Below are positions 2,400 through 42,234 of a stretch of DNA of 64,000 bases, piece after piece (position 1 is the first letter of the stretch; each line of letters begins with the position of its first letter). Location of the stretch: the NCBI GenBank assembly GCA_002215645.1, contig NGFI01000002.1:1-64000 (forward strand), given 5' to 3'. The translations under genes and the position numbers were made by a program. This DNA comes from Gemmatimonadetes bacterium 2013_60CM_65_52. GTDB taxonomy: Bacteria; Gemmatimonadota; Gemmatimonadetes; Gemmatimonadales; Gemmatimonadaceae. The notes under the pieces are model-generated. The model saw only the letters and a list, made by a program, of their open reading frames with translations. It searched no databases and was not told the origin of the DNA.

Positions 2400-3442
2400 T
2401 TGTAATCGAGCCTCTAAAGACTAGGCTTCAGCAACTGGTCGCGGCCGGTGCGGCCAACCCGCTTAGCGTAGCCCGGGGGCGCTTTGGCTCCCAAACCGAC
2501 TATTCCTTGGTTGTTTCGCAAGCACAGCAGGTCACGGAGGGGCAGGATGTAATCATCGACCTGACACCGTTCGATCGCATCGGACAAGCGATGGTACTGG
2601 ACGGCATCCTCGGACCACTCGCTCTTGGGCGGAGGACAACCTTTCTTATCCGCGCTGGCGGTGCGAATGAAGCCATTGTGGGTACCTCTTTGCCAGGACT
2701 TGCATGCATCGCACTGTACGACGACTCCGGCAAGCTCCTTCGTGTCAAGTCACCCGTTCAATCGACCGAAAGGTATGCGCCGGTTATTGATGCGTTGACC
2801 GGCTATGATGCGCTTCGACCGCTCCACGCAAAGCTTTCCGCTGACATACTGCAGGCACTTGCGGCTCCTACCATCACACATGCGCGGGACTCCGATCCTG
2901 CCGATCAAGTCGAGCGCGACGGCCGACTTTATTTTCCCGTCGGCAATCGTATGCTCGTGACGTGCTATCTCAATACCAAGCATCTTCTGGCCGTTCCGGC
3001 CAATCTTTTTGCTGTCGCATATGAAGCAACACGCGCGCTGTACGATAGCTTCTCGTTCGCAGCCGTCCGTGCTTCTCCATATGACCTCGTAATCACACCA
3101 AGCAACACGGCCCTTCTAATTGCAAGCGGGGTGCACGCTCTTTCATCTCTACCAGTCGCGGTTGTTGACTCGTTGGGCCCGTTGGCGAATCGCGGCGTCG
3201 CGGCACTGAACACTTCGTTGGACGTTGCAGGTAAGCGGACCTGCCTCATCGTTGACGTCTTGGCTACAGGCGCGGAGATCGATCGCACCATTCAGTACCT
3301 CGATTACCGGCGAGCTGATATCCGTCGTGTCATTGTCTGCTTCGATTGGGGAGCGGGGCGGCCGCTGCTCTGCGATGAATCCAAAATGACCGTCCTATCA
3401 CGTCTCAACGGCGGAGGCGAATATGTCTACCGCTCGAAATAG
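2396..3442 (+). CDS. PRTase-fold protein of the HATPase/HD operon
   Basis: GTG start overlapping the previous stop by 4 bases; 348 aa. The first about 100 residues (EGQDVIIDLTPFDRIGQAM...) again look STAS-like or a divergent alpha/beta region. The C-terminal half has a type I phosphoribosyltransferase layout: a hydrophobic strand DLVITPSNTALLIASG, a central strand VAVVDSLGP, and a PRPP-loop-like LIVDVLATGAEID (residues about 280-295). The usual DD of the loop is VD here. PRTases bind PRPP or nucleotides, and some families in bacterial conflict systems have lost the salvage role. Coupling to an ATPase and an HD enzyme, with no purine or pyrimidine genes nearby, argues against ordinary salvage. 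Translation continues into the next gene, which overlaps it by 20 bases. Confidence 0.65.
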   Translation: MIVIEPLKTRLQQLVAAGAANPLSVARGRFGSQTDYSLVVSQAQQVTEGQDVIIDLTPFDRIGQAMVLDGILGPLALGRRTTFLIRAGGANEAIVGTSLPGLACIALYDDSGKLLRVKSPVQSTERYAPVIDALTGYDALRPLHAKLSADILQALAAPTITHARDSDPADQVERDGRLYFPVGNRMLVTCYLNTKHLLAVPANLFAVAYEATRALYDSFSFAAVRASPYDLVITPSNTALLIASGVHALSSLPVAVVDSLGPLANRGVAALNTSLDVAGKRTCLIVDVLATGAEIDRTIQYLDYRRADIRRVIVCFDWGAGRPLLCDESKMTVLSRLNGGGEYVYRSK

Positions 3443-5375
3443 AGATGCATATAGCGACAAGTTTCTTGCATTAGCGGCCGGGCTACATCTATCAGAAGTC
3501 GGTGGAGACTTATTCGATCCGTTGGATGAGCTGTCGCGCTGTCTTAAAGCGCACCAGTTTATTTGGGCTCTTGCCGAAGAAGAGATCTTTACTGAACACG
3601 GTACGCCCCACTCATACTTTGTTCTTGAGTATTTGCTGAGGCTGGAGCCAATCGCCAAGTGGTCTCCTTATGAGGGTGTTGTTCTGGCGATGGCCGCATT
3701 GGTCCATGATATTGGAATGCAGTTCAACCGCTGGGGCCAGCTTGCCGCGGACGATTCCGGAACGGAGGTCATCGCAGAAGTTCTTCTACTGCGGAAGCCG
3801 CCGCGAGATGTCGATGAAATTCGGGAAGAGCACATTCCCCTCGGCAGCGCATTGATTTCAGCCGAGCTCGATCGTACGTCCTCTTGGGCTTCTCAATTTG
3901 CCTTCTGTTCAGGCACGGATCACGCGCTCTCCGTCCTGGGGCTCGCACATACAGTCGCGTTCGCTCATTCCGACGGAATCGGTTGGGAGGCATTGCGCAA
4001 TGCCAGCGCTGACTACGTCAACGACCGGTCGTGGCCTGGACCGCCGCGGCAGACGATTCGCCCTCGCCTGATGGCGGGTTTTTTTCGCCTAGCGGATGAA
4101 CTCCATTGCGACTTCACACGCGCGCCGGACATCGCCCAACTGTGGCAGGACAGAGTGCCTGAGAAGTCACGCTCCCATTGGGTCGCGGCGGCCTGCACGC
4201 ACTCGATGGATCTAACCGTTATCTCAGCAGAGACTCGACGCGTGGACGCCACACTTCGCTGGCGCAAACCTCGCAATATCACCGCGCAGATGAGGGAGGA
4301 TATTACTCGGCTACTCCTCAGATCGCGCATGGAGAAGCTCACAGACGCGTTTCGCGCCATCAATGAGATGTTTGAAGTGTCGAGACACGGCCACCTGAGG
4401 ATTTACCCACAGACTCATTTCGAGCCGGACCCTGTTGAGGAATTTACAATAGATATCAATGACCGCCTGCGGACGCTCCTCACCGAGCAAGCCCTGGTAG
4501 CTAGCCCGGAGGGCGATCCAAGGGGCGTTACGGACGCGCCAATCACCGGGGCTGCCCTACGCGCCAAGGTCGCGGTGTTCGTCACGGATATGCCGTCGCC
4601 TCTTAGCGACCTCGAAGAGTCGCTCGCCGCGACGGGGCAACTGACATCTGATCTCGATATTGAGAGGATGACTGATGCGTCGCAACCTTTGGACGTGGCT
4701 ACCGGGCCATCAACCGCCATTGAGGGAACAGGGCCTTATCCGGAAACTCTTACCGATGACAACCTGGAAACCACAATGAGGGAGTGGTTGAACACTCACA
4801 GCGAACCGGGACACTGGCGCGTCTCTAGGGGTGCCCACACCAACAGATTGGTTCGGTTACGCGCATTGATGGCGGACCGTGATCTCCTGATTGCAATTAC
4901 ACATCGTGTCCGGCGGATTGCAGAGACTCGGCAGGTAGCCTCGATCTTGGGCGTCGGCACTAGTTGTATTCCAATCGTTGCTCGGCTGTCCTTACAGCTA
5001 TCGCTTCCAGTTACTTTCACCACGCACGAAACAACGGAAGGTGCCCGAGGCTACCAGGGGATAGTTGACCGAACGCCGATTATCGACTTCGGTGGAGAAG
5101 GTAAAGTGTTAATCCTTGATGATCTCGTGGCGCAGGGTGTCACGGCCCACAATCTCATCGAGCGTCTAGAGGAACACGGAGTCGACCCCAGTCGCATCGT
5201 CTATGTCGCGCTCTTTCATTTGAGCTCCGTTCCATTGATTCCGAACCCCGGCGTCCCATTGTTGAGTATCTGCGATGTGCCCGAGGTATATTATGTGGCG
5301 GCGTCGGACGTGCCCAGCAAGTGCGCGCTTTGCATTCGTGGCGATCGGATCGTGAACGAGGTCGATGTTTGGTAG
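3423..5375 (+). CDS. HD-domain phosphohydrolase fused to a PRTase domain
   Basis: A 650-aa, two-enzyme protein. The N-terminal half is an HD domain: His63 (GTPHSYF), the His95-Asp96 doublet (LVHDIGM), a later REEHIPLGSALI and a distal Asp in LADELHCDF, consistent with a metal-dependent phosphohydrolase. The architecture recalls the HD families that I remember being described in bacterial conflict systems. The C-terminal residues about 490-620 form a PRTase: GVGTSCIPIVARL, then VLILDDLVAQGVTAHN, a canonical PRPP loop with two Asp. A ribosome site (GGAGG) precedes the ATG inside the upstream gene. No membrane segments. A plausible job is cutting or modifying a nucleotide under control of the upstream ATPase; the substrate cannot be deduced. 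Confidence 0.75.
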   Translation: MSTARNRDAYSDKFLALAAGLHLSEVGGDLFDPLDELSRCLKAHQFIWALAEEEIFTEHGTPHSYFVLEYLLRLEPIAKWSPYEGVVLAMAALVHDIGMQFNRWGQLAADDSGTEVIAEVLLLRKPPRDVDEIREEHIPLGSALISAELDRTSSWASQFAFCSGTDHALSVLGLAHTVAFAHSDGIGWEALRNASADYVNDRSWPGPPRQTIRPRLMAGFFRLADELHCDFTRAPDIAQLWQDRVPEKSRSHWVAAACTHSMDLTVISAETRRVDATLRWRKPRNITAQMREDITRLLLRSRMEKLTDAFRAINEMFEVSRHGHLRIYPQTHFEPDPVEEFTIDINDRLRTLLTEQALVASPEGDPRGVTDAPITGAALRAKVAVFVTDMPSPLSDLEESLAATGQLTSDLDIERMTDASQPLDVATGPSTAIEGTGPYPETLTDDNLETTMREWLNTHSEPGHWRVSRGAHTNRLVRLRALMADRDLLIAITHRVRRIAETRQVASILGVGTSCIPIVARLSLQLSLPVTFTTHETTEGARGYQGIVDRTPIIDFGGEGKVLILDDLVAQGVTAHNLIERLEEHGVDPSRIVYVALFHLSSVPLIPNPGVPLLSICDVPEVYYVAASDVPSKCALCIRGDRIVNEVDVW

Positions 5376-5482: not shown

Positions 5483-6001
5483 CTACAGCCTATGCATGGC
5501 GCTGCCGATAAGGGCAGCCGGATCCGCAGTGATCGCGATCGCAACGGCATCGAACACCTTCAGCGTCTCTTTTTCTGTCTCCCATGGCCTTCTCACGCGA
5601 GGCAACGTTGCCTCTAGCTCCGGGAACGCTTTGGCTATCATCGTGGCAATTTCGTGCTTCGTGGCGGCGTGGCGCACGCCAAGGGCCTGTCGGACCTCCT
5701 GTCGCGTCACGACGGCCGCCGCAACGTTGAGATGTCTGGCATATCCGAGCAACGCGTCTATTTGCCTGGCTGCGCGAGTGCCTCGATTCGTGCCTGATAC
5801 GTCCTCGAGCGCGATCAGCGATGGGCTATATCGCTTGATCAGGTTATCTGCACGTACAAGGACTTCCTCATTGTTCTTGGAGTAGAGGCGTGCAACGCCC
5901 CAGTCAATGAGGCGACTGCCTCCCTCGAGTACAGCAAAGCCAAAGCCTCTGGTACACGGATCGATCCCCAGAACGCGCATGTGGTGATGAGCCCAGTGCA
6001 T
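5483..6001 (-). CDS. RuvC-like RNase H-fold nuclease
   Basis: About 172 aa. Residues RVLGIDPCTRGFGFAVLEG (first catalytic Asp), SLIALEDVSG (Glu) and KVFDAVAIAITA (C-terminal Asp) reproduce the acidic set of the RuvC/RNase H-like fold. True RuvC is also near this size, but this type, paired with an HTH gene and beside site-specific recombinases, is known to me from genomic islands rather than ruvABC loci. The start at 6001 follows the stop of the HTH gene by one base and has a GGAGGGCGG stretch upstream; the internal ATG at 5980 is also possible. I infer that it handles junctions or nicked DNA of the mobile element. Confidence 0.7.
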   Translation of the reverse strand: MHWAHHHMRVLGIDPCTRGFGFAVLEGGSRLIDWGVARLYSKNNEEVLVRADNLIKRYSPSLIALEDVSGTNRGTRAARQIDALLGYARHLNVAAAVVTRQEVRQALGVRHAATKHEIATMIAKAFPELEATLPRVRRPWETEKETLKVFDAVAIAITADPAALIGSAMHRL

Positions 6002-6002
6002 G

Positions 6003-6353
6003 CTACTCTGTCGCACCGCCCTCCTCGCCAATAATTGTCCTCAGATACGCAATTTTTCGCATCACATATGGCGTCTTCTTCCGCCGCTCGAGCGAAGCGC
6101 ATAGACCTCGCGCTCGCACTCTCACCATCTCCTTAGTCTCAAGAAAGAGCCCCTCGTAGAGGTCGCGAACGGCAGCGCCAAATATGGCCTCGTATCTGAG
6201 GGCCGTTTTCAATATGGGAAGCCGCTGGGCAAGCTCGTGGCGAGAAACACTGGTGCCGCTCATGGAGCCGAGAAGAAACGCGACCTCTTCGTGTGTGAGG
6301 CCAGTTCTCTTCCGATACATTTTCAAATAAGTGGTGAGCGGAACGATGGTCAT
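6003..6353 (-). CDS. XRE-like helix-turn-helix protein
   Basis: A 116-aa protein with an HTH of the Cro/XRE type at residues 8-50 (YLKMYRKRTGLTHEEVAFLLG, then SVSRHELAQRLP). The region LKTALRYEAIFGAAVRDLYEG is typical of regulators that travel with integrases. It is transcribed with the RuvC-like gene, one base between stop and start. It probably regulates the element, binding near the repeat-rich gap upstream (6354-6497). Confidence 0.75.
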   Translation of the reverse strand: MTIVPLTTYLKMYRKRTGLTHEEVAFLLGSMSGTSVSRHELAQRLPILKTALRYEAIFGAAVRDLYEGLFLETKEMVRVRARGLCASLERRKKTPYVMRKIAYLRTIIGEEGGATE

Positions 6354-6430
6354 GCCGGGTGATCATCATAGCTGGCCGATGTCAATGAGCGGAGGCTGCC
6401 TTTCATGCCGTCGATGAAGGGTCCCGTGCC

Positions 6431-6455
6431 GATCGGGGACGTGGGGACGTCCCTC
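6431..6455 (-). repeat. Att-like repeat, copy 1 (GTCCC/GTCCCC pair)
   Basis: On the minus strand this reads GAGGGACGTCCCCACGTCCC followed by CGATC. It shares the two spaced GTCCC(C) blocks found at 6531-6572, 10148-10180, 13702-13730 and 13953-13987. It sits between the ATPase gene and the HTH gene, at one border of the recombinase-bearing unit. It is possibly an attachment-site remnant; the role is inferred only from position and recurrence. Confidence 0.45.
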
Positions 6456-6497
6456 GGCGCGTCTGACCTCACCGTGCTTGTGGCTTCGCTTCACGGC

Positions 6498-7847
6498 CTA
6501 GAAGTCCATCATATCGGGATTTGGACCTTTGGACATCCCCGATGTCCCCACATCCACAGCAACGTCCCCCGGACCGTATCGCTCGAGAAGCGACTCTATC
6601 TTCGGATCGCTGCCCGGGATCACAAACAGACCGCGCGTCTTCACGGGTACAAGCGAGAGCCGCCGGCGAAGTTGTCCGCCAACCCAACGAGCGGTGATCG
6701 GGCGATCATAGTCCGAGCTGTGCCGCTCGGCGAAGCGATCGGTGATGTCCTTCACACCCAGAGGGATGCCAGCTTCGCGGAGTTCGCGGATGACCCCAAC
6801 AAGCTGAGCATCGGTACTGGCACTTCTCTCTGCCTCGAGCGTGCTGCTCTTGCCCCGAGCAAGGGCGAGAATGCGCTCCTTCGCCGCGCCGTCCTCGACG
6901 ATCGAGAGGAGGGGCCCGAACACCTGAGCCACACGCGCCTCAATGCTTGGATCCCTTGCGAGCTCGAGATTTCGCTCAGCCTGAAGATTCCGGAATCGAT
7001 ACGCGAGACACTTGTTGCGCAGCTCACAAGCCTCGGTGCGGAAAGTCCGCGGCAGGCTGAGCGGAATGTCTGCACGCGGTGGAAGGCCGGTCATGACCTC
7101 CGTGATGCAGCGACTCTCCAGGGCCTGATCCTGGAAGTCGCCTCTGGTGGCGATGATCTTCGGACCGAAGACCACGAAGGCGCGAGGGTTGAACTCCTTG
7201 GTCGGCGTGGACTCGCTCCGGAGCACCGGAAAACCGGCTGCATTGCCGTTGTTCCAGATCTTCACGATCTCCGCCTTCTCGTCTGAGAACTTGAAATCGC
7301 TCTCGTCCATCACGAGCACTCCCCTGAAGGTGTCGATGATGCGGAACATCGGAGACACCGTGGAGGCGCCAGAGGCAAACATCGGCTTGTAGCAGAGAGA
7401 GCCGATGGTCTGGAGGCAGCGGGACTGGCCGCTGCCATAATCTCCTTTGAGCCTCAGATACGGGACCTCGGAGAAGGCGTCGTAGATCCAGGTCAGGAGG
7501 ACGTAGTATGAGGCCACCTCCTCGAAGCCTTCCGAGAGGTCAGCATATCGATGAATGAACGAGCGGATCTCACCGAGAAGCTCGTCCTGTGACGAGTAGC
7601 CTCCCACGGCGGACGGAAAGAGCACGACGCCGTGTGTGAGGAGGTTGTTATCCCGCGAGTATGGCACCATCCGGCCGTGCTCGGGCGTGTCGAGGGTGCC
7701 CTGCTCCGCTGCCCTCCCATCTTCGAAGACCGCGAACGCCGTCTGGTTCGCATCGGGTTTGTACAGGGTCTCGACGATGGCGCCGCTACGAAGGACCGCG
7801 GATACGATCGGGGTCGCCCGGCCCTTCTGGTCTTGGAGGTTGGTCAT
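6498..7847 (-). CDS. P-loop ATPase (DUF3631/phage-ATPase-like) with altered Walker A
   Basis: 449 aa from the ATG at 7847; the longer frame upstream has shadow-like composition. Residues about 135-150 read YLRLKGDYGSGQSRCLQ, a Walker A in which the essential Lys is Gln (CAG instead of AAG/AAA). Walker B is GVLVMDESDF. Then come a sensor-like region (KIWNNGNAAGFPVLR, FGPKIIATRGDF) and an Arg finger-like ALESRCITE. The C-terminus has a winged-helix-like stretch (DRPITARWVGGQLRRR). Related genes are common beside serine recombinases in islands and are presumed element maintenance or replication ATPases. Loss of the Walker Lys should cripple ATP hydrolysis, so the gene may be decayed or nucleotide-sensing only. 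Confidence 0.7.
   Translation of the reverse strand: MTNLQDQKGRATPIVSAVLRSGAIVETLYKPDANQTAFAVFEDGRAAEQGTLDTPEHGRMVPYSRDNNLLTHGVVLFPSAVGGYSSQDELLGEIRSFIHRYADLSEGFEEVASYYVLLTWIYDAFSEVPYLRLKGDYGSGQSRCLQTIGSLCYKPMFASGASTVSPMFRIIDTFRGVLVMDESDFKFSDEKAEIVKIWNNGNAAGFPVLRSESTPTKEFNPRAFVVFGPKIIATRGDFQDQALESRCITEVMTGLPPRADIPLSLPRTFRTEACELRNKCLAYRFRNLQAERNLELARDPSIEARVAQVFGPLLSIVEDGAAKERILALARGKSSTLEAERSASTDAQLVGVIRELREAGIPLGVKDITDRFAERHSSDYDRPITARWVGGQLRRRLSLVPVKTRGLFVIPGSDPKIESLLERYGPGDVAVDVGTSGMSKGPNPDMMDF
6531..6572 (+). repeat. Att-like repeat, copy 2
   Basis: Reads GGACATCCCCGATGTCCCCA, then an 8-base spacer and CAACGTCCCCC. It overlaps the last codons of the ATPase gene. The TCCCC/GTCCCC spacing matches the copies at 10.15, 13.70 and 13.95 kb. 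Confidence 0.45.
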
Positions 7848-8154
7848 TGGGGCAGCGTAGCACGGCAGTGCGACCGTGATAGGAGGCGAAACGTGACGCT
7901 GGCGGCATGATCTTGAAGTGCAACGTCGTTCAATCCCCATACCATGCCGCATGGCGCGTCTCACAGGCCGTTGGAGTACGACTCGACGAAGGTCGGGGCC
8001 GATTGCCTCCGATGGGCTTCGTCTCGAGCGGCAAGCATTGCGGTTCGTGCTGGTGTCCATCCACAATCCGGGATCAGATGCGCAACCGTGGTACCCGCAA
8101 CGGCATATTTGGCCGCCTTCGACGCGGCCCGTCTCCGCGTAGGATAGGTGGTCT
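7848..8154. other. Intergenic stretch with no supported gene
   Basis: 307 bases between the ATPase start and the small ORF. Short open frames exist on both strands (for example an ATG at 7944, about 67 codons), but none has a ribosome site or recognisable motif. It should contain the divergent promoters of the ATPase and of the recombinase unit; I see no confident -35/-10 pair. Confidence 0.4.
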
Positions 8155-8328
8155 ATGCTCACGATCGAGGAATACAAGAAGCTGCTTGGCGACCGGCTCA
8201 CCGAGCTTACGGACACCGAGATTCAGATCTGGTATGAATGCCACACCACGTTCGTGGCTTTTGTGCTCAAGTGTTGGCTCGGATCGCGTGGGAAGCGGCA
8301 GGAAAGTTGTGATAAACTGGCGCCATGA
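8155..8328 (+). CDS. 57-aa protein translationally coupled to the serine recombinase
   Basis: ATG at 8155 preceded by AGGATAGGTGG. The product begins MLTIEEYKKLLGDRLTEL and ends in a basic Cys-containing tail. It is mostly helical, with no signal or membrane segment. Its TGA overlaps the recombinase ATG (ATGA), so recombinase translation is probably coupled to it. Small acidic helical proteins in this position could be directionality factors or simple translational leaders; nothing in the sequence decides. I do not recognise a family. Confidence 0.65.
   Translation: MLTIEEYKKLLGDRLTELTDTEIQIWYECHTTFVAFVLKCWLGSRGKRQESCDKLAP
8310..8318 (+). promoter_or_regulatory. Extended -10-like box 6 nt before the recombinase ATG
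   Basis: TGATAAACT (TGn plus TAAACT) ends exactly 6 bases before the ATG at 8325. Two cargo genes downstream show the same spacing, so a leaderless recombinase transcript separate from the coupled one is plausible. No good -35 element is visible. Confidence 0.4.
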
Positions 8329-10127
8329 CCGCAGACAACACCATCTACGCCATGGGATACGCCCGCGTCAGCACGGCAAAGCAGGCCGTCGAGAGTGAAA
8401 GCCTGGATATTCAAGCTGACCGCATCGAGCGGCACATTATCGGCCATGGCTGGACAGTCAAACCCATGGACGGTGTCCTCCAAGAACCTTTCACCGGCAC
8501 CACTGATGAGCGTCCGGTCTACCAGGAAGCCCTCCGATACATCAGGAAGAACCGAGGCACGATTCGCTATTTCGTGGTCATGACCATCGATCGTTTTTCA
8601 CGTGAAGGAGCATTCAAGTACCAGCAGATGAAGGCGGAGCTTGCTGCCGAAGGTGTCGAGCTCCGAGACATCAGCGGCGTGATTCAACCACGCGTGAACA
8701 GCCTCCAACATCTCGGGTTCAAGTACGGCTGGAGCGAAACAAGTCCGAGCGACGTCGGTGAGGTCGTGCTTGCCGAAACCGCGAGCCATGAACGCTCGCG
8801 GATTCTGACAAGGCTCGTCGAGGCCCAGATTAGGCTCACGCAAGGCGGCTACCACCTCGGGCCCGCGAACGACGGATACGTCGTCAAGCGAGTGTTTGTT
8901 GACGGGAAGAAGAAGCTGGCGCAGTTCCCAGATCCGGAGCGCGCCGAGTTCGTCCGTGTAATGTTCAGGATGCGAGCCGAAGGGACGACCTCAGATGAGG
9001 AGATCGTCAAGCATCTCAACGGCCTCGGGTTTCGTACGAAGCCGTTCAACAGGTGGAACCGAGCGAAGACGGTGGTCGTAGGGCACAAACCAGGGATGCC
9101 ACTCACGGTGAAGCACTTTCAGTGTCTCATCCAACGGCCGGCCTATTGCGGCATCACCGTCCGCAGATGGACGCACGGAAAGGCTGTTCGGGCAAGGGGC
9201 GGAGAGGCACTGATTCCAATCGCACAGTTCAACGCTGCCAACCGTGGAAGGGTGTTCATCGAAGAACACGAGGATGGCTCCGTGCGCATCTCCTATAACC
9301 ACATGCCGAGCCGGCAACCTCCCAAACGGCACAAGTTCTCGCTACGCTGGCCGCTCAAGAATGTCGTTGCGTGCCCACGCTGCAGAAAACCACTCTTCGC
9401 AAGTGCGAGTCGTGGCAAATCTGGGCACTACTTCACCGCCTATCACTGCTCGCGGGGACACGCGCGATACAGTGTACCGCAAGCCAAGCTTGAGCAGGCT
9501 TTCTCGACCTTCGTGGCGACATTGCACTTCGAGCCGAAGTTCTTCGCCTGTTTTGAAACGCTGCTCGTCGATGCCTTTCACGACGCCCAAGCGCAGTGGA
9601 CGAACGAGAGGCGGACAAGTGCATCAAAGATCGCCACGCTCGAAGAGCGCAAGACCCAATTGGCTCTGGCCTTTGCCGAGACCACATCGGCGAGCGTTCG
9701 AAAGGTGCTCGAACAACAGGTGACCGCTCTAGACGATTCCATTTCAGAGGTGGGGCAGCAGCACCAAGCATTCGGCTCCGCTGAGGGTGACGTCCAGACC
9801 TTCCTCACCTATGCCAGAACGCTATTGGAACACCCCCAAAAGATCCTTGACAACATTGAGCATCTTCGAGAACAGCTTGCGATTTATGGTCTGTTCTTCG
9901 AGCGTCCACCGACCTTCGATGATATCGTGTTTGGAACACCCCTCCTACGGCTAACCTTCGCCCTCTCCCGCCAGGTCGCCATGCAACAATCTCGGGCTGT
10001 GCACAGACAAAGTCTGGATTGGAACACTCTACACCAAGAGATCGAGCGGTGGAAGGAAGCGGAGTGGGCCATTGATGCAATCCTGAGGAGACTTCATCTA
10101 CAGGACTCCGCGTTTGCAGCGGCCTGA
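8325..10127 (+). CDS. Large serine recombinase (site-specific integrase)
   Basis: 600 aa. The N-terminal resolvase domain carries YARVSTAKQAVESESLDIQ (nucleophilic Ser at about residue 11), the TIDRFSREGAFKY segment and the DVGEVVLAETASHERSRILTR helix. The recombinase domain follows (GYVVKRVFVDG, then AYCGITVRRW). A zinc-ribbon region comes next with CPRCRKPLF and YHCSRGH at about residues 350-380. A coiled-coil region (residues about 415-500) precedes the C-terminus. All catalytic-domain parts are present, so it appears intact. It should integrate or excise DNA at short att sites and is the likely driver of the island. Its last about 42 codons plus downstream DNA are duplicated at 13.55 kb. 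Confidence 0.92.
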   Translation: MTADNTIYAMGYARVSTAKQAVESESLDIQADRIERHIIGHGWTVKPMDGVLQEPFTGTTDERPVYQEALRYIRKNRGTIRYFVVMTIDRFSREGAFKYQQMKAELAAEGVELRDISGVIQPRVNSLQHLGFKYGWSETSPSDVGEVVLAETASHERSRILTRLVEAQIRLTQGGYHLGPANDGYVVKRVFVDGKKKLAQFPDPERAEFVRVMFRMRAEGTTSDEEIVKHLNGLGFRTKPFNRWNRAKTVVVGHKPGMPLTVKHFQCLIQRPAYCGITVRRWTHGKAVRARGGEALIPIAQFNAANRGRVFIEEHEDGSVRISYNHMPSRQPPKRHKFSLRWPLKNVVACPRCRKPLFASASRGKSGHYFTAYHCSRGHARYSVPQAKLEQAFSTFVATLHFEPKFFACFETLLVDAFHDAQAQWTNERRTSASKIATLEERKTQLALAFAETTSASVRKVLEQQVTALDDSISEVGQQHQAFGSAEGDVQTFLTYARTLLEHPQKILDNIEHLREQLAIYGLFFERPPTFDDIVFGTPLLRLTFALSRQVAMQQSRAVHRQSLDWNTLHQEIERWKEAEWAIDAILRRLHLQDSAFAAA

Positions 10128-20305: not shown

Positions 20306-21385
20306 GTGAAGCGACTCGCCATTTGCGCTGACGGCACCTGGAACGTTCGGGACCAGGTTGACAAGACCACCGGCCTCCGGCGTCCCACGAACGTGACCAA
20401 GGTGGCGAGGGCCATCCTCACGCGAGGAGGTGCAGGCGATACGGCAGTGACTCAGATCGTCGTTTATCACGAGGGCATCGGCACGGGAAGTGGCCTCGAT
20501 AAGTACACGGGCGGTGCCTTCGGCGATGGCATCGAGGCTAATATCCGCGACCTGTACCGCTCGATCGTCTACAACTTTGACGCGGGCGATGAGCTCTTCT
20601 TCTTCGGCTTCAGCCGAGGCGCGTTCACCGTGCGGGCGCTCATCGGGTTCATGAACGCGGTCGGCATTCTTCAGAAGGGCGATGACTACTGGCTCCCCGA
20701 ACTGTACGGCTGCTACCAGCAGGGCAAGAGACCGGGATCACCCGAGTGGGCTAATGCCATGCGTGGTCTTGAGCACCCAGTGTTGCCCTGCCCCTCAATC
20801 AAGTTCGTGGGTGTATGGGATACGGTTGGAGCACTCGGCGCGCCCGGCTTTCTCGGACAGCTACTCAAGCGGGACAAGTATGCCTACCTCGACGTCTCCT
20901 TGAACGAGCATATCGAACACGCCTATCAGGCCCTTGCTGTCAACGAGCGTCGAAAGCCGTTTGCGCCGAGTATCTGGGTGCGCCCCAATGGATGGGACGG
21001 CACGATCGAGCAGGCTTGGTTCCCCGGCTTCCATTCTGACGTTGGCGGCGGAGAGCATCGGGACGGGCTCGCCAATCAAGCGCTCCATTGGATCGTCGAC
21101 AGAGCCGAGAAACACGGGCTCGCCTTCGACGGCGAGTTTCTGAGCTACTATAAGCCGTGCTACAACGGTGACATGCACGACTCGATGTCCAACATGTATC
21201 GCGTACTCGGCCCAATCGACCGGACCATGGGTCTAGGAGCCGCTGAACTACCTCATACATGTGCGGTCGATAGAATGAATGATCCGACCTGTCAGTACTC
21301 TCACGAAGGCTTGACGCAGCTGATTGCTGCGCACCCGGGGCAGATGTACGAGACGACTCGGCTGCCAACTCGATCCACCTGCTAA
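20306..21385 (+). CDS. DUF2235 alpha/beta-hydrolase (T6SS Tle1-like phospholipase fold)
   Basis: 359 aa with a GTG start. The opening MKRLAICADGTWN is the DUF2235 signature (CDGTWN). The nucleophile elbow is FFGFSRGAF (GxSxG). GVWDTVGALG (Asp) and WFPGFHSDVGGG (His) complete a catalytic triad. Members include the Tle1 phospholipase effectors and many intracellular hydrolases of unknown substrate. No VgrG, PAAR or Hcp gene is nearby and there is no signal peptide, so a secretion-effector role is not supported here. The extreme C-terminus (after about residue 340) differs from the family pattern. Confidence 0.85.
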   Translation: MKRLAICADGTWNVRDQVDKTTGLRRPTNVTKVARAILTRGGAGDTAVTQIVVYHEGIGTGSGLDKYTGGAFGDGIEANIRDLYRSIVYNFDAGDELFFFGFSRGAFTVRALIGFMNAVGILQKGDDYWLPELYGCYQQGKRPGSPEWANAMRGLEHPVLPCPSIKFVGVWDTVGALGAPGFLGQLLKRDKYAYLDVSLNEHIEHAYQALAVNERRKPFAPSIWVRPNGWDGTIEQAWFPGFHSDVGGGEHRDGLANQALHWIVDRAEKHGLAFDGEFLSYYKPCYNGDMHDSMSNMYRVLGPIDRTMGLGAAELPHTCAVDRMNDPTCQYSHEGLTQLIAAHPGQMYETTRLPTRSTC

Positions 21386-32183: not shown

Positions 32184-35100
32184 ATGCAGCAGGACGTCCT
32201 GCTTAGCCGTTTCGACGAATGGGAGACGCGCATGCGGGCGTGTCCGCCTTGGCCCGAGCGCGTCGAGCTTGAGCCGCCGTTCGAGCCGCTCGTCGCCGAA
32301 CGCCGGGTGCGAGTGGGCATTGTGGACGACGCACGGTCTCCCGGCCTTCTTGATCGGCTCTTCGGCAAAAGCTCTGAAAGACCGACGGGCGAGGTAGCTA
32401 GCGAAGAGCTCATCGCCTCGCCGCGCGTGAGTCGAGGCCCGATTTCGGAGCTTCAACTCCTCCTGCCGGAAGGGTTCGTGATCAAGACTGGCATGGCCAG
32501 CCGCCTACTAGCTTCGCTCCAGAACCTCGAGGACCCGCTCGGTTTTGAGCTTGTGGGGACGTCGGAGCATGTGGTGACCCAGCTCTCGTGCTCCGTAAGC
32601 GATCGGCCCACGGTCCAAGCTTCACTCCGTGCCTTCTTCCCAGAGCTGAAGGTGCGTGAGCGAGCAGACTATCTACGCACTGAATGGGAGGGCGAGGAGC
32701 GCTACGGCGTCATCCTTGGTTTTGGGCTTCGTGAGCGGGTGTTCAGACAGCTCGCCACCGAAGACAAGCTGGACTTTGACCCCCTCATCGGTGTCATCGG
32801 CTGCCTCAACGCGCTTTCCGAGGGCGAGCTTGCTCTTGTTCAGGTTCTATTTCATCCCGCAAGACGGCCGTGGGGACGTGAACTCGAGGACTTCGCCTCG
32901 AAGATCGACGATGTCGATCACGTCCTTCCACAGGTTCGAGAGAAGTTCTCCGATCCCATGTACGCTGCGGCGATCCGCGTGGCTGCGCTCGGGCGACGCG
33001 AGGAGGAAGCTGTCAGCCGTGCAAACAGTCTAGCGGCCGCTATTCACGCAGCCACTCGCTCGAAGTACAACGAGCTCGAATTGCTATCACCGGCCGATCA
33101 CTCCTTTGAGGTGGAAGCAGAAGATATTCTCACTAGGGAGGCGCATCGGAGCGGCATGCTCCTCTCTCTTCGTGAACTGCTCACCCTTGTCCATCCGCCG
33201 TCTGCTGCGGTCCGTTCCGAACGCTTGACTCGGCAGCGTGGACGAACGAAGGCAGCTCCTCTTGGGACGGTCGGGCATGAACTCGTGCTGGGCGTCAACG
33301 AGCACGATGGCGAGGAGCGAGTGGTCTCACTCTCCGTCTCTGAGCGCCTCCGCCACACCTACGTGATCGGCGCGTCTGGCACGGGCAAGAGTACGCTCCT
33401 CCTCTCGATGGCCATCCAGGACATCGAAGCCGGGAACGGCTTCGCAGTCCTCGATCCGCACGGAGATCTCGTCGATGACATCCTCGCGCGTATTCCTCCG
33501 GAGCGTGTCCGCGATGTGATCCTCTTTGATCCGGCCGATGAAGCGTTTCCGATAGGATTCAACATCCTTTCCGCGCATTCGGAGCTTGAGAAGACGCTTC
33601 TGTCCTCAGACCTCGTGGCCGTCTTTCGCCGTCTCTCGACGACCTTCGGCGATCAGATGGTGACGGTCCTCGGGAATGCAATCCTCGCGTTCCTCGAATC
33701 GACTGAAGGCGGGACCCTGCTTGATCTGCGGAATTTCTTCGTGGACCGGGCCTTCCGCGCTCGTTTCCTCGAGACCGTTCAAGATCCAGAGGTGATTCAC
33801 TACTGGGAGCAGGAGTTTCCGCTTCTCAAAGGCTCCCCGCAGGCGCCTCTCCTTACTCGCCTCAACACTTTCCTGCGGCCGAAGCTCATTCGGCACATGG
33901 TAGTGCAGCGAGAGGATCGGTTGAACCTCCGCACCATCATGGACGGCAAGAAGATCCTCCTTGCTAGACTCTCTCACGGAGCGATCGGTGAGGAGAACGC
34001 GCACCTCCTTGGCTCACTCCTCGTGGCGAAGATCGCGCAGGCAGCCATGAGCCGGCAGGATGAAGATGCGGCCAGGCGCGTGCCGTTCTTTCTCTATATC
34101 GACGAATTCCACCACTTCGTCACACCCTCCATCTCCTCCATTCTCTCGGGCGCGCGAAAGTACGGACTCGGTCTCGTCTTGGCTCATCAGGAGATGAGAC
34201 AGCTCAAAGCGAGAAGCGAAGAGGTCATGAGCGCTGTCCTCGGGAACGCGTTCACCCGCATCGCCTTCCGGTTGGGAGACCAGGACGCTCGCACGCTTGC
34301 TGATGGACTCTCCTTCTTCGAGGCGAGTGATCTCCAGAACCTCGGCATCGGAGAGGCCATCGCACGCATCGAACGACCGGACTTCGATTTTAATCTGCGT
34401 ACCCGCCCTGTTCACGCCATGAGCGACAGGTTCGCCTCGGCGCGCCGCGAGACCGTGCTTGATGCCTCGCGGGCGGCCTATGGAACGCCGAAGGCGGAGG
34501 TGGAGACCAGGCTGCAATCGGCTCGAGAAGGATCGACGCAACGCAGCCAGAGCTCACCAAGCCCCACTGTGCCATCCACCTCCATTGTGGCCGACGCCAC
34601 GCCGGTGAAGCGACAGACCAAAGCGCCGCTTCCAGGCAGGGGCGGTCCGCAGCACAAGTACATGCAATCTCTGGTGAAGAAGCTCGCCGAGGATCGAGGC
34701 TTCGGGGTCTCGCTCGAGAAGACGGTCCTCGATGGCCACGGATACGTGGATGTCGCGCTTGAGCGAGAGGGGATGTCCGTCGCCTGCGAAATCTCCGTGA
34801 CGACTCGCGTGGCTCACGAAATCGGGAACCTCTCTAAGTGCCTTGCCGCCGGTTTCAACTATGCCGTCCTCATCTCGACGGATGAACGTGCGCTCGCCGC
34901 GGCCTCTGGTGGATTCGCCCCACCGGATGAGCGCATCCGTCTCCTGACGCCCGACGCCCTCATCGCCTTCCTCGACGAACTATCAGGGCACGTCCCGAAG
35001 GCAGCGCCTCCAAGAAAGCAGGGCAATCAGGGCAAGCTCGCTTTCGAGAGACCCGCGGATGGCGAGCAGTCGAAACGTCTCCTCGGCACAGCGGAAGCGG

Positions 35101-35267
35101 CGGATTATATCGGCCTAGCCGTTCAGACGCTCGCCAAGATGCGAGTCTCCGGAGAATCGCCGCCCTTCTACAAACTCGGCCGCCAAGTCCTCTACGACCG
35201 TTCTGACTTGGACGAATGGGTTTCCGCGCGTAAGCGGCGCTCGACTTCGGACAGCGGTCGTTCGTAA
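32184..35267 (+). CDS. VirD4/HerA ATPase fused to PD-(D/E)XK-like and excisionase-type HTH domains
   Basis: 1027 aa. Residues 1-350: uncharacterised N-terminal domain (LQLLLPEGFVIKTG...). Residues about 380-770: TraG/HerA ATPase with Walker A GASGTGKSTL (near 396), FAVLDPHGDLVDDI, Walker B FFLYIDEFHHF (near 640) and VLAHQEMRQLK. Then a Ser/Pro linker. Residues about 825-930: restriction-endonuclease-like fold, GHGYVDVALEREGMSVACEI containing Asp and Glu in a PD-(D/E)XK-like order, although the expected Lys after the Glu is replaced (EIS). Residues about 965-1017: a MerR/HTH_17 unit (LGTAEAADYIGLAVQTLAKM, YKLGRQVLYDRSDLDEWV) as in excisionases. No relaxase nearby, so DNA transfer is not the obvious role. 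Confidence 0.85.
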   Translation: MQQDVLLSRFDEWETRMRACPPWPERVELEPPFEPLVAERRVRVGIVDDARSPGLLDRLFGKSSERPTGEVASEELIASPRVSRGPISELQLLLPEGFVIKTGMASRLLASLQNLEDPLGFELVGTSEHVVTQLSCSVSDRPTVQASLRAFFPELKVRERADYLRTEWEGEERYGVILGFGLRERVFRQLATEDKLDFDPLIGVIGCLNALSEGELALVQVLFHPARRPWGRELEDFASKIDDVDHVLPQVREKFSDPMYAAAIRVAALGRREEEAVSRANSLAAAIHAATRSKYNELELLSPADHSFEVEAEDILTREAHRSGMLLSLRELLTLVHPPSAAVRSERLTRQRGRTKAAPLGTVGHELVLGVNEHDGEERVVSLSVSERLRHTYVIGASGTGKSTLLLSMAIQDIEAGNGFAVLDPHGDLVDDILARIPPERVRDVILFDPADEAFPIGFNILSAHSELEKTLLSSDLVAVFRRLSTTFGDQMVTVLGNAILAFLESTEGGTLLDLRNFFVDRAFRARFLETVQDPEVIHYWEQEFPLLKGSPQAPLLTRLNTFLRPKLIRHMVVQREDRLNLRTIMDGKKILLARLSHGAIGEENAHLLGSLLVAKIAQAAMSRQDEDAARRVPFFLYIDEFHHFVTPSISSILSGARKYGLGLVLAHQEMRQLKARSEEVMSAVLGNAFTRIAFRLGDQDARTLADGLSFFEASDLQNLGIGEAIARIERPDFDFNLRTRPVHAMSDRFASARRETVLDASRAAYGTPKAEVETRLQSAREGSTQRSQSSPSPTVPSTSIVADATPVKRQTKAPLPGRGGPQHKYMQSLVKKLAEDRGFGVSLEKTVLDGHGYVDVALEREGMSVACEISVTTRVAHEIGNLSKCLAAGFNYAVLISTDERALAAASGGFAPPDERIRLLTPDALIAFLDELSGHVPKAAPPRKQGNQGKLAFERPADGEQSKRLLGTAEAADYIGLAVQTLAKMRVSGESPPFYKLGRQVLYDRSDLDEWVSARKRRSTSDSGRS

Positions 35268-37145: not shown

Positions 37146-38348
37146 TCAAACGCGGAAAATCTTGTTGTACCCGAGGGTGCCGAGTGCCGTAGTGCGGGCG
37201 TCGATTTCCTTCGTACCCCATTTCGTCGCGAGGCGCAGCGTGTCATCCAGCGGGACGCCCGCTTTCACATAGGCCTTTTGCTTCGGGAGGAAAGGCTTGT
37301 TGCCAACATCATCGTTGGTCGGATGGTCAAGCAACAGCAGGTTCCCCAAGCGCCCAACGCCAGGCTCCACCGAAGTACCCGCCGGAGGCTTCTCCGGGGA
37401 TACGTGCTCGATTGTCATCTTCGTATAGTCCACAGGAGCTCCGGAACGCAAATGCTCGTCGATGCGCTGCAGGAGGTACTGCACGAGTGCCTTCTGCTTG
37501 GTATTTGTCGACAGGAACTCAAGTTGTTCGATGCCCGCCTGGAATTCCGCTTCGCTCGGGACGCGCGCCTTTAGCTTGGCCCGGAAGGATTTCAGCGCGT
37601 CGGCACGCTTCTGGCTGCTCAACACGCCTGTCAATTCTTGAGCCGCTGCGGCATACATCTTGGCCGTTCCACCGCCAGTCCGCTGCGCAGTCAACGCGGT
37701 GAACTGCACATGGAAGTTCTCCATGCTGCGTAGGCAGGCTTGCGTCTGGCTCAGACTGATCTGGCCGCCGCGATAGACTCGCAACAGTGCGAGTATCATC
37801 GGTAGTGGTTGACCGACGCGGAACAATGCGAGGGCCTTCAGCGACGCAAATAGCGTCGCTTCCTGCCTTGACCATTTGCCGCTAGTCGGCTCCAGTATCA
37901 TGCGGTACAACTCAGAATCTGAACTGAGGCCCGCGAGGTACTCGTCGGCGTTCGTCTTCTTGACTGAGTTCCGTATGGTGCGAAAAAGCTTCTCTCTTCC
38001 CGCGTAGGCGTTACGCGAAATCCACGAGTGATAGATGAAGCTGTTGATGTCGATGTCGGCGGCTGATTCGTCGAACCGTTCCAAGAGCTTGTTCCACTTA
38101 TCTCGTGTCGCATCGACTCCCTTGTTCATCGGCTTTAACAATCGTGTCAACAGGTTTGTCACCAGGTCAGCGATGCCCAGGTCCTTGCCTCGCGTATTCA
38201 AGGTTTCGAAGATGACGTATGCTTCATCTTCGGATTGCAGCTCGATGGCTATCAGATGCAGTCGCAAGACGTTAGCGCGCAAACCAAGGAGTTTTGCGCG
38301 AAACGCGTCGGGGACATCCGCTTTCTTGTCGAAGATCGGGGGTGGCAT
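37146..38348 (-). pseudogene. C-terminal part of a split DUF262/DUF1524 (GmrSD-like) gene
   Basis: 400 codons. It opens within the DUF262 domain: EDEAYVIFETLNTRGKDLGI is the closing motif of that domain. It then runs into the helical linker and the DUF1524 nuclease (MTIEHVSPEKP, GRLGNLLLLDHPTND; the HNH-like His and Asn). The matching N-terminal part lies at 41259-41841 on the same strand. GmrSD-type proteins are modification-dependent restriction enzymes that cut phage DNA with glucosylated hydroxymethylcytosine. The fragment has an in-frame ATG at 38348 but no ribosome site, so independent function is doubtful. Confidence 0.8.
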
Positions 38349-38794: not shown

Positions 38795-38968
38795 TCACCC
38801 GTATTCACGATCAGATAACATCATACGCCACAGCAAAGAGATGGCGCTCATCCCGATTCCCAAGAGAAGCCACAATTGCCAACGACCGCCTGCTCCGGCA
38901 AGGAAAGAAAGCCCCGTCGCTGACAAAGACACGCTGGCAATCTGGTAGAGCTGGCGCCCTTTCGTCAT
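38795..38968 (-). CDS. Small membrane protein (57 aa), last gene of the CPBP operon
   Basis: The ATG overlaps the lipoprotein stop (ATGA), good evidence of translation. The product MTKGRQLYQIASVSLSATGL continues into two hydrophobic stretches (SLSATGLSFLAG and WLLLGIGMSAISLLW) and a charged end LSDREYG. Two short membrane helices are likely. In a cassette with a protease and a Gly-rich lipoprotein this could be an immunity-type or accessory protein, but that is inference only. Confidence 0.6.
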   Translation of the reverse strand: MTKGRQLYQIASVSLSATGLSFLAGAGGRWQLWLLLGIGMSAISLLWRMMLSDREYG

Positions 38969-39849
38969 TTCCTATATGCGAGGTAGGCGGAAAGACCGCC
39001 AGCCAACGCGCCGACAGCACAATAGCCCATGGTTACGGCCCCCGCATTTCCCAGAGCGGTTACCGGTCCTCCAGCCCCGAAGCCGAAAATAGCGGCATCC
39101 CTTATGTTGCTGAGGTTACTAAGTACCATCGAAGCACATCCCGCATACGCCGCCGCCCTTATGTCGGCAACATGTGCGCTCGCTTGAAGCACGAATATTG
39201 ACATGAGGTTCTTACCGTCCGACGCGATCCATCCATCTATGGTTGTGTAGGCGTCGTCTATCGCAGGCCCGATCTGCCCCAGTGCCCAGTCGGCAGTTAT
39301 GTTCGCGTCCGCCCAATCAGATGCCTCGTCCATTCCGCGAACACTTGCCCTGGAAGTGCCGGGCGCAACTCGAAAGAGACTCATTGCGGGCTTTGCACCG
39401 CATTCGGATGTAACAGACAATAACTGGCGCACGAAAGCCTCGCGCGCATCAGGGCTCATCTTCGTCCCTCGAAGGTCAACTTGCGGAAGATGGTGCTCGA
39501 ATAGCGCTCGCAGACCCGCGCAAAACGTAGCGGGGCTGGTGCCAACCGATGAGGAACCAAACCACTTCTCACGGTTCAACGTTGCATCCTGATGCATGTT
39601 CTCGAACGCATCACGGTATGCTGCGAATGAAGATGGAAAAGCGGGCGCCGAAGAGTGTGAAGCAGAACCCGGAGCCAGGACTGTACTTCGAGTCGACACA
39701 GATGGAGCCTGTGAGCGAGACGCGGCGACGATTCGCCGCGACGTGTTCTCAGTCGGAGAACCATCGAGCGAACACGCGATTGCGAAAGCGGTAATCGCCA
39801 CGCCCAGGATCACCATCGCGCCAGCATGATACCGGTTCACCTTACTCAT
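38965..39849 (-). CDS. Lipoprotein with glycine-rich hydrophobic C-terminus
   Basis: 294 aa from the ATG at 39849 (GGAG upstream), which overlaps the CPBP stop by 8 bases. Signal and lipobox: MVILGVAITAFAIAC. The middle contains DWADANITADWALGQIGPAI and several Cys. The last about 60 residues are unusual: Ala/Gly-rich and hydrophobic (FGFGAGGPVTALGNAGAVTM, then GYCAVGALAGGLSAYLAY), resembling the Gly-zipper helices of class II bacteriocins or pore-forming peptides. No known family. It is flanked by a CPBP protease gene and a tiny membrane protein gene in one operon. Confidence 0.6.
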   Translation of the reverse strand: MSKVNRYHAGAMVILGVAITAFAIACSLDGSPTENTSRRIVAASRSQAPSVSTRSTVLAPGSASHSSAPAFPSSFAAYRDAFENMHQDATLNREKWFGSSSVGTSPATFCAGLRALFEHHLPQVDLRGTKMSPDAREAFVRQLLSVTSECGAKPAMSLFRVAPGTSRASVRGMDEASDWADANITADWALGQIGPAIDDAYTTIDGWIASDGKNLMSIFVLQASAHVADIRAAAYAGCASMVLSNLSNIRDAAIFGFGAGGPVTALGNAGAVTMGYCAVGALAGGLSAYLAYRK

Positions 39850-40633
39850 TGTCTCGTCTCCGTGAGAGGATATTCGCATCTTGCTGTCGCTTGCCTGCCG
39901 CGGATTCGTATCGGCAGTCCAGAAAGACCATAAACGCCCCGGCTGCACCTAGTAGCGGCGCATATAAGGTGCTGAATGGCACAATTTGCCCGTATTGAGA
40001 GATAGCCTCGAGGTTGAGCCTCGCATGTATTGCGGCTGCGAAAGCGATTCCGGCATTGCGAGCCACCAGCGTGTACAGGATACCTGCAGCGAACAGGCGC
40101 GCGAGTTCACGTTGGTCGATGGGACCCCGCTCAGCTCCCAGCAATTGGCTATGAGCAAACGCGAACATCAATTGAGCACAGACAATCGCAATGAACTTTG
40201 CATAGGCGTCAGCTATGCCAAGCTTCTGAAGCCCACCGGACGCGCGCAGCGGAAGTGCACGCCGAAACACAAACTCCTCGGCCAACGCGGCCAGCCCAAT
40301 AGACGCCAGCAACAGCGCAGTTGAATCAGTAAGAGGCGAGACTGCTAGCGGCATCAACGCGACAAGGGCAAGAAACAACGTCGCCGCCAAGACAATGTTG
40401 CGAAGCCCGCTGGTAATAATCTCGCTAAGAGGGGTAGCGGCGGGACCCGTCGTAGGCCAAAGCAACAAGACGTTCAGACCCGCGAACGCACACGGTGCTA
40501 ACAGCACCGCCGCAGGAATGGTGCGAGAATCCACCGTCCCAGCAATTGCGCGAGCAAGGGGGACGCTCGATACTACAAGAGCGAACGGGAGTACGGCTTC
40601 GGCGCTACCACTAAATGTGCGACCGCGGTTCAC
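39842..40633 (-). CDS. CPBP-family intramembrane metalloprotease
   Basis: 263 aa, GTG start overlapping the previous stop (GTGA). The three CPBP motifs are present: EEFVFRRAL (EExxxR), LMFAFAHSQL (FxxxH) and IHARLN (HxxxN), set in six to seven hydrophobic segments. These Abi/CAAX-type proteases cleave within membranes; many bacterial members provide bacteriocin self-immunity or process peptides. Located between a four-helix membrane protein and a lipoprotein with a bacteriocin-like tail, it may process or neutralise that product. Confidence 0.85.
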   Translation of the reverse strand: MNRGRTFSGSAEAVLPFALVVSSVPLARAIAGTVDSRTIPAAVLLAPCAFAGLNVLLLWPTTGPAATPLSEIITSGLRNIVLAATLFLALVALMPLAVSPLTDSTALLLASIGLAALAEEFVFRRALPLRASGGLQKLGIADAYAKFIAIVCAQLMFAFAHSQLLGAERGPIDQRELARLFAAGILYTLVARNAGIAFAAAIHARLNLEAISQYGQIVPFSTLYAPLLGAAGAFMVFLDCRYESAAGKRQQDANILSRRRDNE

Positions 40634-41091
40634 CTCCGCCGCAGTTTGGCGAGAGTTGTTGATGCGAGCCAGAATGACAGCACAATGACGATCACGCGTG
40701 CAACGAGCGGTGTAAACTCATCTGTTGCGCGCGAACGAAATAGCACTACGAGCAGAGCTACACCGGGAATTACCAGCTGACTAATGCCACCAGCCTTCGG
40801 ATGCCCATCGCGTGTTGTTTGGTTCCACGCGAAAAATGTAGAGAGCGCAACCGATGCGGCTGTCAGCTCCAACAGGCGCATTGCAGAAAAGAGAGATCCG
40901 CCGACATTCTCGCCAGCGGAGCGACTCGCTCTTGTGATTGTGTCCGCGGCTGCCAAGCCCATCGCAAGCAGCACCCCGAGCATGCACCCCACCAAGACGA
41001 TCCACTTAACATCCGATGCGTTAAGTCGAATGCCCAGCGTAATCTTCGGACGCGGCGTCGAGGTGCTCTCAGCACTTTGGTTGCGTTGCAT
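40630..41091 (-). CDS. Four-helix membrane protein, first gene of the CPBP operon
   Basis: 153 aa. Hydrophobic segments at residues about 30-50 (WIVLVGCMLGVLLAMGLAAA), 70-90, 105-122 (LVIPGVALLVVLF) and 130-147 (VARVIVIVLSFWLASTTLA). AGAGGA upstream of the ATG. No family recognised. Its stop overlaps the GTG of the CPBP gene. The 167 bases between its start and the GmrSD fragment presumably hold the operon promoter and the right border of the insert. Confidence 0.65.
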   Translation of the reverse strand: MQRNQSAESTSTPRPKITLGIRLNASDVKWIVLVGCMLGVLLAMGLAAADTITRASRSAGENVGGSLFSAMRLLELTAASVALSTFFAWNQTTRDGHPKAGGISQLVIPGVALLVVLFRSRATDEFTPLVARVIVIVLSFWLASTTLAKLRRR

Positions 41092-41258: not shown

Positions 41259-41841
41259 TTAAGCGACGCGGATGCGGTGCGTCGGATCCGTGACCTCCAT
41301 CTTCTTGTCTGGCAAAACGGCCGGATCGCTCTCCACAGCTGTGACGACCGCGTTTACTTGCTTCGTGAGGTACCTGAACGCTGTTTGAAGGGCCTCCTCT
41401 TCGCGACCGGCGTTGGCGGCGAGCTGAGCGGGTCCATGCTTTTGAATGTGTTCGTGGAAATAGGGATAGGAGGTCTCGGTAATAAGCACGAACCGCTTAT
41501 CGCTGTTGACGTCCGACCGCTCGACCAAAAGTTGTGTGCCTGTTGCCATTGGGCTGTCGCCAATGGCATCGAAGGCGTTTCGGATAGCAGCAAGCAGGAT
41601 TGTGGCCATTGTAAGCCGCTGCTGGCCGTCCACGACCATCATGAAATCCGACGCCGCGGTCTCGCGATAGAGGACAAAGGAACCGATGAAGTAATCCGGG
41701 TCCGTATTCGCGATTGCATCGCTCCAAAAAAACGTCGACGTTCTCCTGATCCCACGAGTAAGGTCGCTGGAAACGCGGGATCTTGTAGAATCCTCCTTCC
41801 AGAAGAGCCTGGAGCGTCTTGTCTGATGGCTTGATAAGCAT
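41259..41841 (-). pseudogene. N-terminal part of the split DUF262 (GmrSD-like) gene, frameshifted
   Basis: The start at 41841 gives MLIKPSDKTLQALLEGGFYK, IPRFQRPYSWDQENVDVF, the classic DUF262 opening. A run of seven T (A7 at 41726-41732 on the plus strand) then shifts the frame. With six T the protein continues FWSDAIANTDPDYFIGSFVL and reaches the DUF262 signature VVDGQQRLTMATILLAAIRN. The frame ends at 41261 in PDKKMEVTDPTHRIRVA, where the domain should continue into the 37146-38348 fragment. Two lesions, a homopolymer indel and an insertion, would each inactivate the enzyme. Confidence 0.82.
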
Positions 41842-42097
41842 GCGTGTCTTCTGGCGTCGTCGACGGGAAAGGACAATCTGCAGTAGCATCGTTCTCTAGT
41901 CGAGCTCTTCAGACCACCGGCGATTCCTTCTCATTAGAAGACCGCGATCCACGCGCGCCCTAGACGCACTCGCGAGACGGCTGCCCGGGGCGAAAGCGGA
42001 GGTGTCGGCTGGCGAATGATCGCTAAGCCATACAAGCTCACTACCTGCGAGTAATGTTCACTTTCGCGGTGCTTACTCGGTGCTTATTTGAACGACA

Positions 42098-42126: not shown

Positions 42127-42160
42127 CTCATATCGCATTGGTATTGTTTGACTTATCTCA

Positions 42161-42234
42161 TCGGGACGGCGGGATTTGAACCCGCGACCCCCTGAACCCC
42201 ATTCAGGTGCGCTACCGGGCTGCGCTACGTCCCG
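42161..42234 (-). tRNA. tRNA-Pro (anticodon GGG)
   Basis: A 74-base cloverleaf. Acceptor CGGGACG/CGTCCCG with discriminator A, D arm GCGC/GCGC, anticodon arm CCTGA-ATGGGGT-TCAGG giving anticodon GGG after U33, T arm GCGGG-TTCAAAT-CCCGC. The 3' CCA is not encoded. It separates the accessory 0-42 kb from the GC-richer housekeeping part and is a natural island insertion site. I did not find a duplicate of its 3' end within the window, so the far att site, if any, lies outside. Confidence 0.96.

What the first reader, a model, noticed from the sequence alone, without database searches (positions are those of the whole stretch)
38795..41091. CPBP protease operon with a bacteriocin-like lipoprotein tail and a 57-aa membrane protein
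Four genes overlap by 4-8 bases: a four-helix protein, a CPBP protease with all three motifs, a lipoprotein whose last about 60 residues are a Gly/Ala-rich hydrophobic stretch like pore-forming bacteriocins, and a tiny two-helix protein. CPBP proteases often give bacteriocin immunity. The cassette is inserted in a restriction gene, as a moving toxin/immunity unit might be.
Basis: partly seen in the sequence, partly recalled or inferred. Interest (0 to 1): 0.7.

Follow-up and report, generated by a model that had tools for sequence, protein, structure and literature searches.

The report
Orphan protease–lipoprotein operon in broken restriction gene
Four tightly packed genes (two small membrane proteins, an intramembrane protease and a lipoprotein with a greasy glycine-rich end) interrupt a dead restriction gene on a genomic island; they look like a possible bacterial weapon with self-protection, but almost no relatives exist to test that, so the function is an informed guess.

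Summary
On the minus strand at 41091-38795 four genes overlap by 4, 8 and 4 bases: a 153-aa membrane protein, a CPBP protease with EExxxR, FxxxH and HxxxN, a 294-aa lipoprotein with a Gly/Ala-rich tail, and a 57-aa membrane protein. They split a GmrSD (DUF262) restriction gene that also carries a frameshift, so that gene is dead.

The tail is unusual for this genome, but too weakly hydrophobic to be a plain membrane anchor. It matches no bacteriocin, toxin or sorting-signal family. No relatives of the lipoprotein, CPBP or 153-aa protein were found in several hundred genomes of the phylum, plasmids, phages or viral contigs, and there is no second copy in this genome. Only the 57-aa protein has a credible relative, without a CPBP or lipoprotein nearby. 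What clearly moves is a tRNA-Pro island of at least 48 kb that contains the cassette.

Best explanation (about 0.35): a membrane-active lipoprotein precursor, processed by its CPBP and guarded by the small membrane proteins. The main specific rival is a non-toxic surface lipoprotein trimmed by a dedicated protease. A myxosortase label is not supported: other CPBPs of this genome match that model equally well or better.

The parts
40630..41091 (-). 153-aa polytopic membrane protein, first gene of the cassette; no family
39842..40633 (-). CPBP (Rce1/Abi-like) intramembrane glutamic protease, 263 aa, all three motifs
38965..39849 (-). 294-aa lipoprotein; lipid Cys26, Ser/Thr/Ala-rich linker, Cys110/150, C-terminal region with Cys238/277
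38965..39147 (-). last 60 codons plus stop: Gly/Ala-rich tail (24 of 60), proposed membrane-active part
38795..38968 (-). 57-aa small membrane protein, candidate immunity protein; one relative (G212 C12, 79-aa ORF)
41259..41889 (-). 5' part of the interrupted GmrSD/DUF262 restriction gene (homology from 41841), frameshift near 41729
37146..38348 (-). 3' part of the same gene (end of GmrSD_N and GmrSD_C)
41287..41309 (.). edge copy of an imperfect direct repeat (17/23), encodes DKKMEVTD
38308..38330 (.). other edge copy of that repeat, encodes DKKADVPD
42157..42204 (-). tRNA-Pro 3' end forming a 48-bp att site of the host island; perfect copy at own contig C9:5815-5862

Best explanation
A small interbacterial-competition cassette. 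The third gene makes a lipoprotein precursor that the Sec/lipoprotein route carries to the cell envelope; its Gly/Ala-rich, cysteine-bracketed C-terminal region is the membrane-active part. The co-translated CPBP protease cuts or clears this tail in the membrane, and the 57-aa and 153-aa membrane proteins (with the CPBP, if it is an immunity factor) protect the producer. Shown: the genes, their overlap, the lipobox, the catalytic motifs, the odd tail, the insertion in a dead restriction gene on a tRNA-Pro island. Inferred: toxicity, cleavage, immunity, and that the four products work together.
For: Overlapping genes imply co-translation. Intact CPBP motifs. The tail is the only one of its kind among 541 proteins of this genome, at thresholds taken from it. 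Precedents: BcpT, a proteolytically activated lipoprotein toxin with a 57-aa lipoprotein immunity protein encoded just downstream (PMC9308784); SitA lipoprotein toxins with SitI, often on mobile elements (PMC8546572); Gly-zipper toxins CdzC/D with inner-membrane immunity protein CdzI (PMC5380434); CAAX proteases in bacteriocin clusters (PMC9298176). Patchy distribution with no relatives in 288 genomes of the order and a mobile island context suit a fast-evolving accessory weapon.
Against: No match to any toxin, bacteriocin or immunity family. No dedicated exporter in the cassette. The tail has only a +2 net charge and is moderately hydrophobic. The single relative of the 57-aa protein lies among other small genes without CPBP or lipoprotein partner. 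Orphan status means no comparative support for any part being selected. The single-sequence fold of the lipoprotein failed (pLDDT 38).
Confidence: 0.35

Rival explanations
1. Dedicated surface-protein maturation: the CPBP trims the C-terminal tail of one partner lipoprotein (a one-enzyme/one-substrate sorting pair). The tail is a retention or sorting signal and the product is a harmless surface protein.
For: The tail ends Cys277, about 15 weakly hydrophobic residues, then Arg-Lys, which recalls the Cys / membrane helix / basic end of MYXO-CTERM tags cut by a CPBP protease (PMC11980579). The CPBP hits the myxosortase core model NF040914 weakly (E 0.001).
Against: NF040914 scores 19 bits against a cut-off of 100, and two other CPBPs of this genome score 30.9 and 18.7 bits, so the hit is not specific. 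No C-terminal sorting-signal model matches the tail. The helix is short and weak (best 19-mer 1.35). The protein already has an N-terminal lipid anchor.
Confidence: 0.25
2. Unrelated accessory envelope genes gathered on the island and packed into one transcript, with no toxin; the CPBP and small membrane proteins serve host-envelope or regulatory roles.
For: CPBP proteases have many roles (PMC9298176); this genome holds five others. The 57-aa relative lies among unrelated small genes. Codon-position G+C is nearly flat in the cassette.
Against: Overlaps of 4-8 bases across four genes, with no known family for three of the four, argue for a joint unit.
Confidence: 0.3
3. A decaying remnant: the island end is degenerating (split and frameshifted GmrSD) and the cassette is no longer functional.
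For: GmrSD is broken twice; codon-position bias in the cassette is weak.
Against: All four reading frames are open, overlap precisely and keep the catalytic motifs and lipobox; the frameshift lies in the target gene, not the cassette, and could be an assembly error.
Confidence: 0.1

Closest known systems
BcpT/BcpI of Phocaeicola vulgatus (PMC9308784)
   Same: Lipoprotein whose C-terminal part is the toxin, activated by proteolysis, with a 57-aa protein encoded immediately downstream as immunity; carried on mobile DNA
   Different: BcpT is 499 aa, cleaved by a protease encoded outside its locus; BcpI is itself a lipoprotein, not a two-segment membrane protein; no CPBP; no Gly-rich tail noted; no direct sequence comparison was made here
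SitA/SitI of myxobacteria (PMC8546572)
   Same: Lipoprotein toxin with immunity gene in the same operon, on mobile elements; sometimes an accessory gene (sitB) upstream
   Different: SitA moves by outer-membrane exchange and carries other toxin domains (SitA4 a nuclease); no CPBP
Myxosortase MrtX / MYXO-CTERM (PMC11980579)
   Same: CPBP protease acting near a Cys followed by a helix and basic residues at the C terminus
   Different: Sequence no closer to the myxosortase model than unrelated CPBPs; one partner lipoprotein; tail fits no CTERM model
CPBP/CAAX proteases of Gram-positive bacteriocin loci (SagE, SilX and relatives; PMC9298176)
   Same: CPBP beside a candidate toxin; roles in processing, immunity or reception
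   Different: Those substrates are short peptides; here the candidate is a 294-aa lipoprotein in what looks like a Gram-negative lineage (inferred)
CdzC/CdzD with CdzI of Caulobacter (PMC5380434)
   Same: Gly-zipper-like hydrophobic toxin, membrane immunity protein
   Different: 84-86-aa proteins exported by type I secretion; no CPBP

Membership tests
CPBP (Rce1-like) intramembrane proteases | PF02517 domain above the curated cut-off | tested here: met
   30.8 bits against 22.4, E 3.6e-7
CPBP (Rce1-like) intramembrane proteases | Motifs EExxxR, FxxxH, HxxxN in order in a multi-helix protein | tested here: met
   Residues 119, 157, 203; seven hydrophobic segments
Bacterial lipoproteins | Signal helix ending in a lipobox Cys near the N terminus | tested here: met
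   VAITAFAIAC, Cys26, segment hydropathy 2.28; lipidation itself not testable
Myxosortases (NF040914) | Score above the family cut-off of 100 bits | tested here: not met
   19 bits; other CPBPs of this genome 30.9 and 18.7
C-terminal sorting signals (CTERM families) | Tail matches an NCBIfam CTERM model | tested here: not met
   No CTERM match at E up to 10 for the tail
Pore-forming or class II bacteriocins | Match to a bacteriocin family in Pfam or NCBIfam | tested here: not met
   No match at E up to 10 for the tail
Pore-forming or class II bacteriocins | Killing or membrane leakage activity | not testable with these tools
   Needs expression
Bacteriocin immunity proteins | Protection of a sensitive cell | not testable with these tools
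   Only position and size suggest it; no family match
GmrSD (DUF262) type IV restriction enzymes (interrupted target) | GmrSD_N and GmrSD_C in one reading frame | tested here: not met
   Both domains present but split by the cassette and by a frameshift near 41729
Integron gene cassette | attC site (RYYYAAC ... GTTRRRY) at the edge | tested here: not met
   None by consensus at either edge, although the genome has an IntI

The most novel reading that the evidence does not exclude
A previously undescribed kind of weapon in which a CPBP intramembrane protease releases a Gly/Ala-rich pore-forming tail from its own operon's lipoprotein, with two small membrane proteins giving immunity.
Probability: 0.2. 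Interest if true: 0.65.

Novelty: new variant of a known kind. Interest (0 to 1): 0.33.

Why it matters
If true, it would join two known themes, lipoprotein toxins and CPBP proteases in bacteriocin loci, in one operon of a little-studied lineage, and give a simple pair in which to ask what bacterial CPBP proteases cut. As things stand it is a well-defined but unproven orphan operon.

Tried and rejected
Relatives of the lipoprotein: phylum sample of 298 genomes, genus (24), order of 288 genomes (69), genome contigs (25), viral contigs (26), plasmids and phages. The one hit from the order, L066, lies in an HPr-kinase-like ORF and is judged an Ala/Gly composition match. Relatives of the CPBP: 395 phylum genomes (28), genome contigs (30), viral contigs (14), plasmids: none. 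The contig-collection scans with single sequences reach close relatives only. The 153-aa protein: one hit, in a gene that looks like a prolipoprotein diacylglyceryl transferase, judged a membrane-helix coincidence; none in viral contigs or plasmids. SdpABC-like system: considered from memory; no NCBIfam match. Myxosortase pair: not specific. Integron cassette: no attC; no array was seen beside the genome's IntI. Fold search of the 153-aa model: nothing. Rfam: nothing in the cassette. PADLOC: no defence model matches the four proteins; the GmrSD halves match Orf5/HEC-06.

Full report
Observation. The 327-aa start of the lipoprotein ORF is less likely because the ATG has a GGAG at a usable distance. 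The CPBP has all three motifs and passes the Pfam cut-off. The lipoprotein has a good lipobox, a Ser/Thr/Ala-rich linker, and four further cysteines at 110, 150, 238 and 277 that could form two pairs (inference). Its last 60 residues contain 24 Gly+Ala. In ~680 kb of the same genome (541 predicted proteins) no other protein meets the thresholds set by this tail; because the thresholds come from the tail itself this shows rarity, not function. The tail's best 19-residue hydropathy is 1.35, lower than for a normal membrane helix.

Surroundings. Three intact DUF262 proteins from plasmids align to both sides of the cassette: the GmrSD_N part lies at 41841-41295 and the rest at 38318-37149, so the cassette separates positions that are a few residues apart in relatives. 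The N part changes frame near 41729, a second lesion or an assembly error. The edges share a 17/23 repeat encoding DKKxxVxD; none of about 380 random pairs of the same size reached 17. That suits an old target duplication or a short-homology join, but the copies are far from perfect. Codon-position G+C differs between cassette (third position 0.57-0.62) and the GmrSD parts (0.68-0.71), consistent with separate origins.

The whole neighbourhood is an island. The tRNA-Pro gene at 42161-42234 has its 3' end in a 48-base stretch that is repeated perfectly at C9:5815-5862 of the same genome, next to a tyrosine integrase at C9:4376-5698. G+C rises from about 0.57 to 0.65 across the tRNA. The window's 1-42160 and the start of contig C9 therefore look like two ends of one island of at least 48 kb, with a contig gap between them (inference). 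This is the mobile unit for which there is evidence; the four-gene cassette has no transposase, no evident inverted ends, no second copy in the genome and no attC-like site.

Relatives. The lipoprotein, CPBP and 153-aa protein have no credible relatives in any collection searched; two weak hits were examined and dismissed as composition matches. The 57-aa protein has one relative, a 79-aa ORF in another genus of the same family, 36% identical over the shared part. Its alignment score of 74 compares with 25 +/- 5 for shuffles, none of 2000 reaching it; shuffling does not keep helix periodicity, so this somewhat overstates significance. It stands in a row of small unrelated genes without a CPBP (motif scan) and without a comparable partner lipoprotein (by eye). 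So the 57-aa protein is not tied to the other three.

Function. I commit, at about 0.35, to a competition cassette: an exported lipoprotein precursor with a membrane-active tail, processed by the CPBP, with the small membrane proteins as protection. The published parallels are BcpT/BcpI, SitA/SitI, CdzC/D/I and CAAX proteases in bacteriocin loci. These are resemblances, not membership: no bacteriocin, toxin or immunity family matches. The strongest specific rival is a one-to-one sorting or trimming pair like myxosortase, but this CPBP is no closer to the myxosortase model than other CPBPs of the same genome and the tail matches no CTERM model. A loose set of envelope genes without a joint function is nearly as likely as the best reading (0.3).

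Limits. Metagenome contigs could not be searched. The single-sequence fold of the lipoprotein was uninformative (pLDDT 38). No statement about toxicity, cleavage or immunity has direct evidence.

Noticed in passing
window 42157-42204 and G000 C9:5815-5862: 48-bp perfect copy of the tRNA-Pro 3' end beside a tyrosine integrase (C9:4376-5698): apparently two ends of one genomic island of at least 48 kb that fills the window's first 42 kb.
   Followed up: yes
L065 (G000 C9) 5815-8846: A second, imperfect copy of the tRNA-Pro 3' end lies 3 kb further on; between the two copies is a single 900-aa gene with ThuA and glycoside hydrolase family 9 domains, perhaps a second small element at the same site.
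   Followed up: no
G000 C11:108350-109288: True integron integrase (TIGR02249, 411 bits against a cut-off of 265) close to a contig end; no cassette array seen on that contig.
   Followed up: partly
window 8325-10127: Large serine recombinase (Resolvase plus Recombinase domains) within the island.
   Followed up: no
window 20306-21385: Protein with a Tle1-like phospholipase domain (PF09994, E 1.9e-71).
   Followed up: no
window 3423-5375: Protein fusing an HD-CE domain with a phosphoribosyltransferase-like domain.
   Followed up: no
window 32184-35267: 1027-aa protein with type IV secretion coupling-protein (TrwB/TraG) domains and a C-terminal helix-turn-helix.
   Followed up: no
window 41700-41740: Frameshift in the N-terminal part of the GmrSD gene, separate from the cassette insertion.
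   Followed up: partly
L066 (G438 C176) 1078-2256: 68-aa ORF resembling a lasso-peptide precursor followed by an HPr-kinase-like ORF: possible lasso peptide cluster.
   Followed up: no
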